A DNA stretch of 34,215 nucleotides from Terriglobia bacterium (GTDB lineage Bacteria > Acidobacteriota > Terriglobia > UBA7540): NCBI GenBank assembly GCA_020073545.1, contig JAIQEZ010000047.1, forward strand, positions 1 to 34,215. The letters run 5' to 3'. Positions 630 through 22,737 of the stretch are shown here, piece by piece. The notes beneath the pieces were generated by a model, which saw only the letters and a program-made list of their open reading frames with translations, did no database searches and was not told where the DNA came from. The translations under genes and the position numbers were made by a program. The first letter of the stretch is position 1, and the number at the start of each line of letters is the position of its first letter.

Positions 630-704
630 TGGTGAGCCGGCTGGGACTCGAACCCAGAACCCCTGCCTTAAAAGGGCAGTGCTCTACCATTGAGCTACCG
701 GCCC
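630..704 (-). tRNA. tRNA-Lys (anticodon TTT)
   Basis: Read on the minus strand, the segment folds as a 75-nt cloverleaf. The 7-bp acceptor stem is complete with one G-U pair. The D-arm is GCTC/GAGC, the anticodon stem CTGCC/GGCAG has loop CTTTTAA (anticodon TTT), and the T-arm has TTCGAGT in its loop. The CCA end is encoded (630-632). It should decode lysine AAA/AAG codons. Confidence 0.97.
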
Positions 705-12635: not shown

Positions 12636-12710
12636 TCCTCAGTAGCTCAATGGTAGAGCATTCGGCTGTTAACCGAAGGGTTCCAGGTTCGAGTCCTGGC
12701 TGAGGAGCCA
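12636..12710 (+). tRNA. tRNA-Asn (anticodon GTT)
   Basis: A 75-nt cloverleaf with acceptor stem TCCTCAG/CTGAGGA, D-arm GCTC/GAGC, anticodon stem TTCGG/CCGAA with loop CTGTTAA, T-arm CCAGG/CCTGG with TTCGAGT loop, and an encoded CCA end (12708-12710). Confidence 0.97.
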
Positions 12711-16744: not shown

Positions 16745-17284
16745 GTGACTACTCAGACTAGCGGGATCACATTCAGCGTGCTCATGGGAATTCTAGGAGT
16801 CGTGGTAGGAATCGGCACTGTACTCTACTCGGATCGCCTGAAAGTCGAGCATGACACGGCGGCGTTATCTACAGAGATTGCAGATCATGGAAGCCGCATC
16901 AGCACGTTGGAATTGAACTCAGCGACGCATCGGGAAATCCGCGACCTCAAGGACACGATTCAGGACCAGCACAAAGAAACGCTCGAAGAACTTCGCAACT
17001 TGTATCAGATGATGGGAAGTCGCCGTTCGCGAATCCCTAATGGTGCGATACCTGCTGATCCGATAGCACCCGCCGAGGCTAGTCCGCCTGACCTGCCAAA
17101 GGGGTATTTGCGCAGGCATGTTCCATCGAGCTGTTGCGCGTCTAACCCCTATGGAATTAAGAGCCGCTATGAGCTTATTGTCGATGTCGTTTCTTTCGTC
17201 TTCGGACAAAGCAGTCCAGCGTCGCACGGCTTGGAGTATCACACGGCTCGGGGCTGCGCGCAATGGGCAAGAAATCCAAACTGA
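16745..17284 (+). CDS. Membrane-anchored coiled-coil protein, unknown function
   Basis: A 179-residue frame beginning 6 nt after the previous stop with GAGG upstream of its GTG. An N-terminal transmembrane helix (about 8-28, FSVLMGILGVVVGIGTVLY) is followed by a charged helix likely to form a coiled coil (about 32-92, ending HKETLEELRNLYQMM). The remaining tail is Pro/Ser-rich and of uncertain reality. The shape recalls phage holin- or spanin-like accessory proteins, but no family is recognised. It ends 4 bp before the IS left inverted repeat, so the 3' end could have been altered by the insertion. Confidence 0.5.
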   Translation: MTTQTSGITFSVLMGILGVVVGIGTVLYSDRLKVEHDTAALSTEIADHGSRISTLELNSATHREIRDLKDTIQDQHKETLEELRNLYQMMGSRRSRIPNGAIPADPIAPAEASPPDLPKGYLRRHVPSSCCASNPYGIKSRYELIVDVVSFVFGQSSPASHGLEYHTARGCAQWARNPN

Positions 17285-17343
17285 TTTCATGAAAGCGTCG
17301 GCTCCCTCGACCTGAGTAGACTTGGTGGTGCCAAACGACCAAG

Positions 17344-17365
17344 GCTCGGGAGGAAGGAGCCGAGC
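17344..17365 (+). promoter_or_regulatory. Transposase ribosome binding site inside a hairpin loop
   Basis: GCTCGG (17344-17349) pairs with CCGAGC (17360-17365), which abuts the ATG. The 10-nt loop GAGGAAGGAG is the Shine-Dalgarno sequence. This placement could limit or time transposase translation. The effect is inferred from structure only. Confidence 0.5.
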
Positions 17366-18421
17366 ATGTTGATTATAGGATGCGATTATCACCCGAGCTT
17401 TCAGCAAATCGCTTGGGTCGACACGGAAACGGGAGAATGCGGGGAACAGCAACTGCAGCACAGCAATGGAGAAGCGGAGAAGTTTTACCGCGCCCTGAAG
17501 CTTCGGGAAGTACAGGTGCGGGTGGGGATGGAAGCGACCGGGCATGCCCGCTGGTTCGAGCGCTTGCTCGCGGAGATGAAGTACGAGCTGTGGGTGGGCG
17601 ACCCGGCGCAGATCAGGGCCAGCCGCGTGCGCAAGCAGAAGACCGACCGGCGCGATGCCGCCCACATCCTGAAGTTGATGGTGGAAGATCGCTTTCCGCG
17701 GGTGTGGGTGCCGAGTGCGGAGAATCGGGATCTGCGCCAACTGCTCTGGCACCGCCATCGGCTGGTGCAGATGCGGACGCGTGTCATGAATCAGTTGCAA
17801 GCGATCGCCATGCATGAAGGCGTGAGGCGCAAAAAGGGACTGTGGAGCAAGTTGGGGCGGGAGCAATTGGAGTCGTTCCCGCTGGCTCCTTGGGCGCAGC
17901 GGCGCCGGCAGGATCTGCTGGAGTTGCTGGACCGCCTCAACCCGCGCATTGGGGAGCTAACCACCGCCATCGAGCAGGAAGCTGAGCGGCGGCCCGAGGC
18001 GCGACGGCTCATGACCCACCCGGGCGTCGGACCCCTTACGGCCCTGGCCTTTGGGCTGATGGTCGGCCCGGCGGAACGGTTTGGTTGTGGTAAGCAGGTC
18101 AGCAGCTACCTGGGTCTGGTGCCCTGCGAGGACTCCAGCGCTAATCATCAGCGGCTGGGACACCTCAGCAAGCCAGGCAACACGCTGCTGCGTTTCTTGC
18201 GGGTGGAGGCGGGGCAAGCCGTGGTCCGATCGGACCCGGAGTGGCGAGGTCGTTTCCTGCACCTGGCCATGCGTCGGGGACGGTCGGTTGCCGTGGTGGC
18301 GATGGCGCGCAAACTGGCGGTGCGCCTGTACTGGATGTTGCGCCAGGGAACCGAATACCGGCCAAGCCCCGGTTCGGTTCGCACATGGGGTAGCTCGAAG
18401 CTGGGTCATGGTGTGAAGTAG
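17366..18421 (+). CDS. IS110-family transposase (DEDD/serine recombinase)
   Basis: 351 residues, full length. The N-terminal RuvC-like domain has the DEDD set: D7 (GCDYH), E56 (GMEATG), D94 and D97 (TDRRDA). A coiled linker (about 120-210) leads to the C-terminal Tnp domain, where THPGVGPLTA precedes the nucleophile S268 in HLSKPGN. In IS110 enzymes the DEDD and serine sites act together, guided by an element-encoded RNA that pairs with donor and target DNA. No disruption is seen. Another pattern to consider would be a decayed copy, but all catalytic positions are kept. Confidence 0.95.
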   Translation: MLIIGCDYHPSFQQIAWVDTETGECGEQQLQHSNGEAEKFYRALKLREVQVRVGMEATGHARWFERLLAEMKYELWVGDPAQIRASRVRKQKTDRRDAAHILKLMVEDRFPRVWVPSAENRDLRQLLWHRHRLVQMRTRVMNQLQAIAMHEGVRRKKGLWSKLGREQLESFPLAPWAQRRRQDLLELLDRLNPRIGELTTAIEQEAERRPEARRLMTHPGVGPLTALAFGLMVGPAERFGCGKQVSSYLGLVPCEDSSANHQRLGHLSKPGNTLLRFLRVEAGQAVVRSDPEWRGRFLHLAMRRGRSVAVVAMARKLAVRLYWMLRQGTEYRPSPGSVRTWGSSKLGHGVK

Positions 18422-18752
18422 ATCACCGTCAAACTGATGGGGCGCCCCGCTCCCTCGCAGGAGGGAGTTCGAATTCGATAATCAGGGTCGAGGTTAGATC
18501 GAATAGATGGCGGGGTCGGACCGAATCCACCTGGAAAGATTAGCGGCGAGCCTTGGTCGAGGCAGCAGGGAGAGAGTTCGAAGCAAGAACGCCTACTAGG
18601 GAACGAAGCTCAAAAGCACTTCGTTTCGCTTCGTTCCCAACTCCAGGATGAGGACGGGAGGGCTGTCAAGGGTCCAGATGAACGCCCTGCGGGCGCCCTT
18701 GACAGCCCTCCCCGTCCACTAGGCGGAGTCTTTGTCTTTTCTGCTTGACGGC
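18422..18752 (+). ncRNA. Candidate IS1111 guide (bridge/seek) RNA region
   Basis: The 330-bp segment between transposase stop and right inverted repeat has no ORF of note but is rich in structure. A hairpin from CTCCCT/AGGGAG lies near 18450-18467. A 10-bp stem pairs 18599-18608 with 18629-18638 across a 20-nt loop. A 21-bp stem with a single-base bulge pairs 18652-18672 with 18696-18717, and its loop contains a further small stem (18683-18687/18691-18695). In IS1111 elements the guide RNA is encoded in this position. CAAACTGAT at 18430-18438 repeats the sequence just outside the left end (17277-17285). RNA boundaries and guide loops are not determined. Confidence 0.5.
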
Positions 18753-18791
18753 GCCGACGCTTTCATAGATGCACCACTACCGGACGAGCGT

Positions 18792-18820: not shown

Positions 18821-19281
18821 AGGTCGGGATGTCCTTGGTTTGATCAACATGCCGGATCTCTACTAGCTGCGCCGGTTCCTTGCCACGGCATCCGAGCTGG
18901 TCGTCGCTAATGCTTGAGTACGCCAGTGCCCGCGAACACGCAGGGTGTCACTTATCTTCACACGAGCTGTGAACAACAGCCGTTTGAGATTGCACATAAG
19001 TTAAGAGCGAGTTGGTTGTTTTCGTGACAGGTTCGTGCGATATTTGTCTTTCGAGAGGTGTTGGGAAGAAAAGACAAGGGGGATAGACGCGGCCGTACGC
19101 GGATTCAGTTTGCGGTATGAACCGGCCGCTCCGCAGCCGGAGGGATCTTTCACTATTCGGGAACGGGAACCAAGCGAGCCTGGCGTATGACAGGACCCCA
19201 GGTCGAAGCGCTGTTCGCCCGAGATCCGAGCCGCGACCGTGGGGGTTATGGGACGTTGGGGGTTGCACAGAGGTAGGGCCT
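18821..19281 (+). other. Long untranslated leader before the exopolysaccharide genes
   Basis: About 460 bp with no supported gene. The plus frame open from 19117 to the export gene has no recognisable sequence before the signal peptide, so I treat it as leader. No known riboswitch motif recognised. Confidence 0.4.
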
Positions 19282-20385
19282 ATGGTCGGTGAAGCCGCAA
19301 AGCGTCGAAAAACCCGGAGAGCAGTAAAGGCGCGTTGGTTTGGGCTCATAGTTTGTCTTCTCGCCGGTTGGATCCCAGCCCTGGCACAGGAGCCACCCGT
19401 CGCGGCTGGGGTGGAGTCGGTCTCAGCCTCGAAAGAGCCCGCAGCCCCAGCGATGCCGACTGAGGCACTGGGGCGCCATGCAGTGGATTACACCGTGAGC
19501 CCGGAAGACCTCTTGGACATCTATCTCTTAGACGTGCCGGAAGTTACGCGGACGTACCGGGTCAGTTCCAATGGATTTCTGACCTTGCCTTTGCTTCCCG
19601 AACCCATCGCCGTGGCAGGGTTAACCCTGAACGAGTTGTCAAGCTTGATTGCTAAGAAATTCCGTGACGCCGGCATGCTCAACAATGCGCAAGTGACGGT
19701 TTCGCTCAAGGAGACAAGGTTACATACGGTGATCGTCTCCGGGTCGGTAAAACGCCCGCAGGTGTATCCGGTCTACGGCCCAACCCGTCTTCTCGACATC
19801 CTGATCCAGGCTGGGGGGCTTGCCGATGAAGCCGGGAACGAGGCCATCATCGCCCGCGGTTTGGTGGGCGCGCGCGCCCAAGCCGGGGAAGGTGGTCAGG
19901 CGGTTGAAGCGGATCCGTCCGCGAGAGAACAGACACTTACTGTCAACGTCAGAAAACTCGTCGAAGCGGGTGACGACAAGACAAACATTCTTCTCTATCC
20001 GGGGGATCGAGTTACGGTGCAGCGGGCAGAGCTGGTTTATGTTCTCGGCGCGGTCGCGCGCCCGGGCGGATACACAATCAAAGATCCGCGAGAGCAGATC
20101 ACCGTGCTTAAGGCGCTGGCCATGGCCGGCGATATGACGGGGGTCGCCAAGAGGAGCCGGGTCGCCGTTCTGCGCAAGGACCCTGCGGTTCCTGAGGGAA
20201 AGCGTCAAGAGATTGCCGTGAATATCAAAGCCATGCTGCATGGCCAGCTTGCCGATGTGAAACTGCAGGCCGACGATATCCTTTACGTGCCCGAAAGTAG
20301 CAGTCTCAAGGCCATGCGGCAGGCCCTTGCAACGGGCATTGGGGCAGGCACGGCCATCACAACGGGCCTGATCGTTTACCACTGA
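19282..20385 (+). CDS. Polysaccharide export protein, Wza-like (Poly_export/SLBB)
   Basis: About 367 residues from the ATG at 19282, which has AGAGGTAGGG upstream and begins a proper signal peptide (ARWFGLIVCLLAGWIPALAQ). The Poly_export domain starts at VDYTVSPEDLLDIYLLDVPEVTRTYRVSSNGFLTLPLL. Two SLBB units follow (HTVIVSGSVKRPQVYPVYGPTRLLDILIQAGG and VYVLGAVARPGGYTIKDPREQITVLKALAMAGD). Members form the outer-membrane or periplasmic channel for capsule or exopolysaccharide. There is no lipobox Cys after the signal, unlike E. coli Wza. The C-terminus has a hydrophobic Gly/Thr-rich helix (ATGIGAGTAITTGLIV). First gene of the export set. Confidence 0.92.
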   Translation: MVGEAAKRRKTRRAVKARWFGLIVCLLAGWIPALAQEPPVAAGVESVSASKEPAAPAMPTEALGRHAVDYTVSPEDLLDIYLLDVPEVTRTYRVSSNGFLTLPLLPEPIAVAGLTLNELSSLIAKKFRDAGMLNNAQVTVSLKETRLHTVIVSGSVKRPQVYPVYGPTRLLDILIQAGGLADEAGNEAIIARGLVGARAQAGEGGQAVEADPSAREQTLTVNVRKLVEAGDDKTNILLYPGDRVTVQRAELVYVLGAVARPGGYTIKDPREQITVLKALAMAGDMTGVAKRSRVAVLRKDPAVPEGKRQEIAVNIKAMLHGQLADVKLQADDILYVPESSSLKAMRQALATGIGAGTAITTGLIVYH

Positions 20386-20442
20386 TGAGCGGATTCAACT
20401 CGCATCCGCGAACGTGCATTCAGTAGCAGGGAGAGTCCTAAC

Positions 20443-22737
20443 GTGGCTGGCAACGAGTCTCTATCGCCCATCGAACCGAACATTCCACAGCCAATCAGCA
20501 GCCTCATGCCAACTACCGTCGAGTTGGAGGCGCAAGGGACTGAAGGTCTCTTCACCTTGAGCACTTTCTGGCACATCATCGTGAAGCGGGGGTGGACGAT
20601 CACTACCGCTACCCTCATCGTGGTGGCGCTGACGGCAGTATACACGTATAGGATGGTGCCCGTTTACCGGGCCACGACCAGCATTGAGGTGGAACCCGAT
20701 TTACCTCAACTCCAATCCATTAACGACCTCTATCGTCAAGTCCCCCCAGACGACTACTCCTTCATCGTGACCCAGATGCAGGTCCTCCAAAGTGACAACC
20801 TGGCTTGGCAAACGATTGAACAGCTTGGGCTGGACCGCAGCCAGGCCTCCACTGTGCCGAAAGGTGCCTCCCAGCCATCGGCAACGCAGATAGCGGCGGC
20901 ACAGAAGGCCGCCATGATTGGGGACTTGAAGGGGGGACTGCACATCGAGCCGCTTAAGGACAGCCGCATCGTCGAGGTGAGCTTCGAGGGCAGTGATCCG
21001 GAAGGTGCGGCGCGAATAGTCAACGCGCTAGTCAGCAATTACATCGAGTTCAGTTTTCGGGCAAGGTACGACTTCACACGCCATGCGTCTGGCTGGATGG
21101 AGCAGCAAATAGAGGACTTGCGGGCGAAGGTTGAGAAATCCCAGCAGGCCTTGGTCGACTACGAGCGCCAGAACCTGATTATCACCGTCGGGGACAAACA
21201 GAACATCACCGAGCAAAGGCTGCAGGATTTGAGCCGGGATTACACGGCCGCCCAGAGTGACCGGGTTCAGAAGGAATCCATTTACGACCTCGCCAAATCC
21301 AACGAAGGGCAGATCGGAATCGTTGTCCAGAACGAGTTGCTGCTGCGACTGGAGGAGAAGTACACTGACCTGAAGACCGCGTACGCTGATGCGAGCGCCC
21401 AATATGGACCGAACTTCCCCAAGGTCGTTCGCTTGCGTGACCAGCTTAATGAGATGCAATCCTTAATTGAGAAGCAAAGGAAGCAAGCGATTCAAAAGGT
21501 CCGCAATGACTACCTGGCGGCCGTCGGCCGGGAAAACCTTCTGGCTGCAGCTATGGGGAAACAGAGGGGAGAGGTCGGCCAGTTGAATCAGCGCATGATT
21601 GAACACAACATCCTGAAGCGTGAGTTCGAAACGAACCAGCAGCTTTACGAGAACATTCTACAGCGGCTAAAGGACGCCACCATCTCGGCGGGCTTGCAGG
21701 CCACGAACATTCACGTTATTGATCAGGCGACCCCACCCACGAGTCCCATCCGGCCGAACAAGACGCGCAACATCCTCGCCAGCCTGTTGGTGGGTCTGAT
21801 TTTCGGGGTCACGCTGGCCTTCGTGCGGGAGGCCCTGGACAGTTCGGTGCGATCGACGGAAGAAGCGGAAAGACTCATCAACGCCCCGGCTTTGGCCATC
21901 ATCCCCGTAGACCGCGATGGTTACCGGCGGAAGCAGTTGCCCACGGATCGCCCGGGGAGTTCCTCGGGGTCGGACGGAGTGGGGCTGGCCGTTCTCAAAA
22001 GGCCGTCTTCGCACATGGCGGAATCCTTCCGGAGCCTGCGGACCTCCGTTCTGCTCTCAACGGCTCCTCGCCCGCCCCAAACCCTGCTCGTGACCAGTGC
22101 GCAGATGGGGGAAGGAAAGACATCCACGGCATTGAACTTGGCGATTGCCTTCTCCCAGCGGGGAGGAACCGTTCTGATCGTTGATGCTGACCTGCGCCGG
22201 CCCAATGTCGCGAAAGCACTGGGTGTCGCGAACGAAAAAGGCCTGAGTAGCTTCCTGACAGGTGCGCACACCTTGCAGGAGGTTTTGATCCAGTCCGAAC
22301 GCGTCAAGAATCTCTGGGTTTTGCCGGCTGGCCCCCGGCCTCCCGACCCGGCGGAACTCCTCTCCTCGCACATGATGGGGGCAACCCTGAAAGGGCTGTC
22401 GAAGCACTTCACGCAGATTATCATCGACTCCCCTCCGGTTTTGGCCGTCACCGACGGGGTGGTCCTTTCGGCGCTCGTGGACGGGGTCATTCTGGTGGTC
22501 GCCAGCGGAGTGACGGCAAGGGGAGCGCTCGCCAGGACTCATAGAATCCTCGAGAATGCAAGAGCGAGGGTTCTAGGCATCGTGCTCAACAAAGTCGACT
22601 TGCGTTTCGACACTTATTACGGGTCCTACTACGGCCCGTATTCCCAGTCCTATTATGATGACGCCTCTGTGTCGAGTCCTTCACATGCGTCCGGAGGTGG
22701 TCACTCGAGGTCCACGGATTCACCCCGCGGGGCATGA
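20443..22737 (+). CDS. Wzc-like tyrosine autokinase/chain-length regulator
   Basis: 764 residues. An N-terminal cytoplasmic tail leads to a Wzz domain with transmembrane helices near 50-70 and 445-465, and a long periplasmic coiled coil between them (GNVR-type). The C-terminal BY-kinase domain has Walker A SAQMGEGKTS (K559), Walker A' VLIVDADLRRP (about 577-587) and Walker B IIIDSPPVLAVTD (about 660). The C-terminus has the tyrosine cluster YYGSYYGPYSQSYYDD, which is the autophosphorylation site in this family. Phosphorylation cycles control polymer length and export through the Wza partner encoded just upstream. The start is a GTG with GGGAGAG 8 nt upstream. Confidence 0.94.
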   Translation: MAGNESLSPIEPNIPQPISSLMPTTVELEAQGTEGLFTLSTFWHIIVKRGWTITTATLIVVALTAVYTYRMVPVYRATTSIEVEPDLPQLQSINDLYRQVPPDDYSFIVTQMQVLQSDNLAWQTIEQLGLDRSQASTVPKGASQPSATQIAAAQKAAMIGDLKGGLHIEPLKDSRIVEVSFEGSDPEGAARIVNALVSNYIEFSFRARYDFTRHASGWMEQQIEDLRAKVEKSQQALVDYERQNLIITVGDKQNITEQRLQDLSRDYTAAQSDRVQKESIYDLAKSNEGQIGIVVQNELLLRLEEKYTDLKTAYADASAQYGPNFPKVVRLRDQLNEMQSLIEKQRKQAIQKVRNDYLAAVGRENLLAAAMGKQRGEVGQLNQRMIEHNILKREFETNQQLYENILQRLKDATISAGLQATNIHVIDQATPPTSPIRPNKTRNILASLLVGLIFGVTLAFVREALDSSVRSTEEAERLINAPALAIIPVDRDGYRRKQLPTDRPGSSSGSDGVGLAVLKRPSSHMAESFRSLRTSVLLSTAPRPPQTLLVTSAQMGEGKTSTALNLAIAFSQRGGTVLIVDADLRRPNVAKALGVANEKGLSSFLTGAHTLQEVLIQSERVKNLWVLPAGPRPPDPAELLSSHMMGATLKGLSKHFTQIIIDSPPVLAVTDGVVLSALVDGVILVVASGVTARGALARTHRILENARARVLGIVLNKVDLRFDTYYGSYYGPYSQSYYDDASVSSPSHASGGGHSRSTDSPRGA

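What the first reader, a model, noticed from the sequence alone, without database searches (positions are those of the whole stretch)
17289..18766. Intact IS1111-type IS110 element with a large structured 3' segment likely to encode a guide RNA
The sequence shows a full DEDD plus serine transposase, 14-bp perfect subterminal inverted repeats and a 330-bp non-coding 3' end with several strong hairpins, one with a 21-bp stem. IS110-family enzymes are known to use an element-encoded bridge/seek RNA to choose target and donor DNA, located 3' of the gene in IS1111 members. That this element makes such an RNA is inference.
Basis: partly seen in the sequence, partly recalled or inferred. Interest (0 to 1): 0.6.

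Follow-up and report, generated by a model that had tools for sequence, protein, structure and literature searches.

The report
RNA-guided jumping gene with leader-pairing guide region
This is an intact mobile DNA element of a known kind that uses its own small RNA to choose where it inserts; comparison with about 40 relatives also shows an apparently unreported second feature, a base-pairing partnership between that RNA region and the start of the element's own transposase message.

Summary
The element is 17282-18769 (1488 bp): 14-bp perfect subterminal repeats with 7-bp and 3-bp extensions, an intact DEDD/Ser IS110-family transposase and a 3' non-coding region (NCR). A paralogous locus in the same genome shows the empty site (ATTCAAAC|TGCACC). 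The guide-RNA reading is supported by covariation in Acidobacteriota relatives: five NCR nucleotides track the left target flank (3.42 against 1.46 of 5 matches, 0/20,000 permutations), and an NCR hairpin covaries (z=10.6). The guide core is 18422-18560. In the window, 8 nt of NCR (TCAAACTG) match the empty site exactly.
Unexpected: the NCR segment at the 3' end of the core (18547-18559) is perfectly complementary over 13 nt to the transposase leader (17336-17348). This complementarity covaries across 42 relatives (z=11.2; 8.4 within subgroups), control pairings show none, and it is absent from 51 classical IS1111 elements (z=0.01). The leader is predicted to fold into a -45 kcal/mol hairpin that buries the ribosome-binding site. 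I infer that the guide-RNA region also regulates its own transposase mRNA; the direction is untested. Known kind of element, new clade-specific variant.

The parts
17282..18769 (+). whole insertion sequence, 1488 bp
   Evidence: conserved ends in relatives; empty site in paralogous locus L207 reads across LF|RF with nothing extra
17282..17288 (+). 7-bp left extension TGATTTC
   Evidence: TGATTNN conserved in relatives
17289..17302 (+). left subterminal inverted repeat ATGAAAGCGTCGGC
   Evidence: perfect match to 18753-18766
17297..17305 (+). leader stem P1, 5' strand (GTCGGCTCC), overlapping the left repeat
   Evidence: covaries with the SD-side strand, z=8.1; fold
17311..17325 (+). leader stem P2, 5' strand (CCTGAGTAGACTTGG)
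   Evidence: covaries, z=6.2; fold
17336..17348 (+). leader segment CGACCAAGGCTCG complementary to NCR 18547-18559; also the loop edge and 3' strand of P2
17356..17363 (+). P1 3' strand GGAGCCGA, containing the Shine-Dalgarno sequence just before ATG
17366..18421 (+). transposase gene (351 aa, DEDD plus Ser)
18422..18560 (+). conserved guide-RNA-like core of the NCR
   Evidence: alignment of relatives
18429..18436 (+). left-target guide TCAAACTG (5-nt variable part plus TG)
   Evidence: tracks target flank in relatives; 8/8 match to the empty site in L207
18449..18468 (+). covarying NCR hairpin GCTCCCTCGCAGGAGGGAGT
   Evidence: z=10.6
18547..18559 (+). anti-leader segment CGAGCCTTGGTCG
18599..18717 (+). 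two strong accessory hairpins (18599-18638; 18652-18717) present only in a subset of relatives
18745..18750 (+). -35-like box TTGACG; with GATGAT across the RE|LE junction (17-bp spacer) would form a circle-junction promoter
   Evidence: TTGAC present near the right end in 38 of 39 relatives; promoter activity inferred
18753..18766 (+). right subterminal inverted repeat GCCGACGCTTTCAT
18767..18769 (+). 3-bp right extension AGA
17274..17281 (+). left target flank ATCCAAAC
18770..18781 (+). right target flank TGCACCACTACC

Best explanation
This is an intact IS110-family insertion sequence with IS1111-type layout. The first ~140 nt of its 3' NCR encode a bridge/seekRNA that selects the target by base pairing; the left-target guide is shown by covariation, the rest is inferred from the family. 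In this Acidobacteriota clade the 3' end of that RNA region also base-pairs with the 5' leader of the transposase mRNA. The leader is predicted to fold into a long hairpin that buries the ribosome-binding site: P1 joins the inner left repeat to the SD region, and P2 sits on top. The NCR segment is complementary to the P2 loop and 3' strand, so it can displace the P2 5' strand. The pairing itself is shown by covariation and best read as RNA-RNA. The inferred function is that the guide-RNA region acts as a riboregulator tying transposase synthesis, or mRNA processing, to guide RNA. I lean towards opening of a default-off leader, as in ISPpu9, but the sign of the effect is not shown.
For: Guide. 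Layout and ends. Leader-NCR covariation: own 26.2 against swapped 18.6, z=11.2; z=8.4 when swaps stay within subgroups; controls (CDS x NCR, leader x CDS, direct repeats) within noise, |z| at most 1.8. Sequences differ widely while staying complementary, e.g. GTTTAGGAACCAGGG/CCCTGGTTCCTAAAC in L072 and TGAGGTCTGAAG/CTTCAGACCTCA in L045. P1 and P2 covary. Leader fold z=-4.2. The sense strand pairs better than the antisense strand (p=0.009), and GU exceeds AC 31 to 17 (p=0.06), which fits RNA pairing. Precedents: PMC8450116 (ISPpu9 leader buries the RBS; an sRNA opens it) and PMC3868564 (5'-3' UTR pairing controls translation).
Against: No transcript data. In a simple fold model, occupying the P2 region does not expose the SD (0.26 free, 0.26 bound). 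Strand asymmetry is modest, and a first count of GU against AC at helix ends was not significant (17 against 13). A small side branch (L003, L009, L023) lacks a clear pairing. The right-target guide was not found.
Confidence: 0.7

Rival explanations
1. Ordinary IS1111-type element with an RNA guide; the leader-NCR complementarity is a DNA feature, for example an internal transposase-binding inverted repeat that coevolves like the terminal repeats.
For: Inverted repeats recognised by one protein also covary; the terminal repeats of these elements do so. Strand asymmetry is only moderate.
Against: The segment lies 55-67 bp from the left end and at a variable distance from the right end (NCR length about 190-450), but at a steadier distance from the stop codon (roughly +110 to +150 in most). 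It is embedded in covarying RNA hairpins. Sense pairing is better than antisense (p=0.009). Classical IS1111 elements have none.
Confidence: 0.15
2. The pairing represses rather than activates: a leader-NCR duplex on the tnp transcript blocks ribosome loading and is cut by RNase III, as in icaR, which may also trim the 3' end of the guide RNA.
For: The duplex lies at the 3' edge of the conserved guide core and ends next to the SD; pairings reach about 24 bp in some relatives. icaR precedent (PMC3868564).
Against: The SD is already buried in P1, so extra repression seems redundant. In the window the uninterrupted duplex is only 13 bp.
Confidence: 0.3
3. The complementarity is a shared-ancestry artefact or chance.
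For: Related elements share sequence; a 13-nt match alone could arise by chance in 1.5 kb.
Against: Own against swapped partners within subgroups z=8.4, 0/4000; controls within noise.
Confidence: 0.02

Closest known systems
IS1111-group seekRNA elements (ISEc11, ISKpn4, ISPa11; PMC11187229)
   Same: DEDD/Ser transposase, subterminal repeats with 7/3-bp extensions, NCR downstream of tnp, target-matching guide in the NCR, likely circle-junction promoter
   Different: Transposase forms a separate, well-supported Acidobacteriota clade; covarying leader-NCR pairing, absent from 51 classical IS1111-type elements; SD-burying leader hairpin
IS621 bridge RNA (PMC11208160, PMC11208158)
   Same: IS110-family recombinase guided by an element-encoded RNA; the clade's transposase profile matches the IS621 and ISCro4 structures through the C-terminal domain
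   Different: IS621 RNA lies 5' of the gene; here it lies 3'; leader pairing not described there
ISPpu9 Asr9/Ssr9 regulation (PMC8450116)
   Same: IS110-family element; tnp leader hairpin buries the RBS; an RNA complementary to the leader changes translation
   Different: In ISPpu9 the activator is an antisense-strand RNA, and the downstream sense RNA opposes it; here the complementary segment is on the sense strand, at the edge of the guide core
icaR 5'-3' UTR pairing (PMC3868564)
   Same: 3' segment of an mRNA pairs with its own 5' leader near the SD
   Different: Host gene, not mobile; pairing covers the SD directly; no guide RNA

Membership tests
IS110 family (DEDD transposase) | RuvC-like DEDD domain plus Transposase_20 C-terminal domain | tested here: met
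   PF01548, PF02371, NF033542 over cut-off; residues conserved
IS110 family (DEDD transposase) | G--P----S(G/T/A) motif | tested here: met
   GLVPCEDSSA; A instead of G after the Ser, shared with L029 and L047
IS1111 group | subterminal inverted repeats of 11 bp or more with 7-bp and 3-bp extensions | tested here: met
   14 bp, 7/3
IS1111 group | long NCR downstream of tnp | tested here: met
   348 bp downstream against 84 bp upstream
IS1111 group | transposase groups with classical IS1111 members | tested here: inconclusive
   separate clade, 100/99 support, nearer to haloarchaeal and alphaproteobacterial IS110s in a small midpoint-rooted tree with one long-branch outgroup
bridge/seekRNA-guided element | NCR guide covaries with target | tested here: met
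   left flank z=10.9 and z=12.7; right flank not resolved
bridge/seekRNA-guided element | conserved, covarying NCR RNA structure | tested here: met
   hairpin z=10.6; most other predicted pairs invariant
bridge/seekRNA-guided element | RNA transcribed and bound by transposase; circular intermediate | not testable with these tools
   needs RNA-seq, co-purification and PCR

The most novel reading that the evidence does not exclude
In this clade the guide RNA has two jobs: it directs insertion, and its 3' segment invades a switch-like leader hairpin of its own transposase mRNA by loop-first strand displacement, so that transposase is made or destroyed according to guide-RNA supply.
Probability: 0.4. 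Interest if true: 0.72.

Novelty: new variant of a known kind. Interest (0 to 1): 0.5.

Why it matters
How IS110/IS1111 elements balance guide RNA against transposase is not addressed in the two founding papers that were searched. A covarying leader-NCR pairing, strong in one clade and absent from classical relatives, makes that question testable with compensatory mutants, and offers a possible built-in control for programmable recombinases. The clade also supplies dozens of sets of guide, target and ends from a little-sampled phylum.

Tried and rejected
Rfam found only two tRNAs in the window. The strong hairpins at 18599-18717 were considered as the guide and rejected, being absent from most relatives. 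A right-target guide was sought by column-wise covariation: no signal above background, partly because the right flank hardly varies in one subgroup. A stem flanking the anti-leader segment shows no covariation (z=0.6 in group B), although a conserved hairpin is predicted there. Opening of the SD by NCR binding is not predicted by a simple constrained fold. Generality in classical IS1111: weak SD-overlapping complementarities in three plasmid elements did not survive the 51-element test. Haloarchaeal elements (L085, L197, L198) have long subterminal repeats but no comparable leader-NCR helix; one 10-bp match in L197 lies beyond its right end. The transposase was not found in viral contigs. ISEc11's record is not in the collections.

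Full report
What is there. The window carries one complete IS110-family element. The transposase ORF 17366-18421 (351 aa) matches both Pfam domains and the NCBIfam model 'IS110 family RNA-guided transposase' well above cut-off. The 14-bp repeats at 17289-17302 and 18753-18766 are perfect. In relatives the sequence outside the repeats is nearly always TGAT[TG]NN on the left and usually AGA or CGA on the right, so the element is 17282-18769, 1488 bp. A paralogous locus in the same genome (L207, contig C107) reads AAATTCAAACTGCACCGCTACC straight across the joined flanks: an empty site with no extra bases, as reported for IS1111 elements (PMC11187229).

Relatives. This copy is the only full one of its kind in its genome; more diverged relatives sit on other contigs. 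Named relatives are Acidobacteriota/Terriglobia metagenome assemblies, and surveys of the class, the phylum and three families gave about 60 distinct elements, mostly at 53-77% protein identity to the window's transposase or, in the second family, to L047. They form a clade with 100/99 support, separate from classical IS1111 elements. The nearest plasmid transposases are about 33% identical. By profile, the clade's transposases match the IS621 and ISCro4 structures.

The guide. Relatives share a conserved NCR core of about 140 nt. The five nucleotides just 5' of its TGATTGG block follow the last five bases of each element's left flank: 3.42 of 5 against 1.46 for swapped partners, 0 of 20,000 permutations (z=12.7 in the column scan). 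In the window the NCR reads GTCAAACTGATGGGG; TCAAACTG is identical to the paralogous empty site. The hairpin at 18449-18468 keeps pairing while its sequence changes (z=10.6). The right-target guide was not resolved. The two strong hairpins at 18599-18717 (z=-6.5) are missing from most relatives, while the guide core itself is not unusually stable (z=-0.13). Fold strength therefore pointed to the wrong segment.

The unexpected pairing. Leader 17336-17348 (CGACCAAGGCTCG) and NCR 18547-18559 (CGAGCCTTGGTCG) are perfectly complementary. Each relative's leader tends to pair best with its own NCR: in the 42-element test, own score 26.2, swapped 18.6, z=11.2, and z=8.4 when swaps stay within subgroups. 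Four control pairings are within noise (largest z=1.8) (first seen with 44 elements). The leader also folds on itself: P1 joins the inner left repeat to the SD region (z=8.1), P2 sits above it (z=6.2), and the whole leader has a fold z of -4.2. The complementary leader segment covers the P2 loop edge and 3' strand, so NCR pairing competes with P2. Sense pairing is stronger than antisense pairing (p=0.009), and GU exceeds AC mismatches 31 to 17 (p=0.06); an earlier count at helix ends gave 17 to 13 (not significant). Together this favours RNA over DNA, not decisively. Fifty-one classical IS1111-type elements show nothing (own 16.92, swapped 16.92).

Transcription. In 38 of 39 relatives a TTGAC box lies just inside the right end, placed so that joining the ends would set it 17 bp from GATGAT. 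In the window it is TTGACG at 18745-18750. By analogy with ISEc11 (PMC11187229) this would be a circle-junction promoter whose transcript starts just before P1; that is inference.

How it probably works. Shown: element borders, target-tracking guide, covarying hairpins, covarying leader-NCR complementarity. Inferred: a guide RNA is made and bound by the transposase; the leader is off by default; the NCR segment acts on it. ISPpu9 offers a precedent for an RNA opening a tnp leader (PMC8450116), and icaR for 5'-3' UTR pairing that blocks translation and invites RNase III (PMC3868564). My fold model did not show SD opening, so the sign stays open. I give activation the edge only because the SD is already buried without the NCR.

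Novelty. RNA-guided IS110/IS1111 elements are known. In the papers found I saw no report of the NCR pairing with the tnp leader; the library lacks preprints and most subscription journals, so this is not proof of novelty.

Noticed in passing
window 18599-18717; L002, L020, L022, L049, L014, L019: Accessory double-hairpin domain with the motif TCAAGGGTC..GATGAACG, found in only a subset of the clade, always near the right end; function unknown.
   Followed up: partly
L202 1430-1596 (G000 contig C207): A right end (accessory hairpins, TTGACAACGCCGACGCCGTTATAGA) with no IS110-family transposase match listed on that contig in the own-genome search: probably an IS remnant.
   Followed up: partly
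window 16745-17284: The upstream ORF takes its stop codon TGA from the first three bases of the IS, so the insertion may have truncated it; a 74% similar uninterrupted stretch is on contig C107 (L207).
   Followed up: partly
L003, L009, L023: Side branch whose elements have the leader hairpin and, in L003 and L023, target-matching guide nucleotides but no clear leader-NCR pairing: lost or never gained.
   Followed up: partly
L067, L078, L080-L083 (G148): Seven transposase copies in one single-contig genome, six examined, mostly with the same right flank GGGGCACCC but different left flanks; a good system for mapping the target rule.
   Followed up: partly
L085, L197, L198: Haloarchaeal IS110-family elements with 14-15 bp subterminal repeats about 220 bp upstream and 190-200 bp downstream of the gene, that is NCRs on both sides.
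   Followed up: no
window 19117-22737: Polysaccharide export (Poly_export/SLBB) and Wzz/GNVR/AAA_31 tyrosine-kinase-like genes directly downstream of the IS.
   Followed up: no
window 633-704 (-) and 12636-12707 (+): Two tRNA genes.
   Followed up: no
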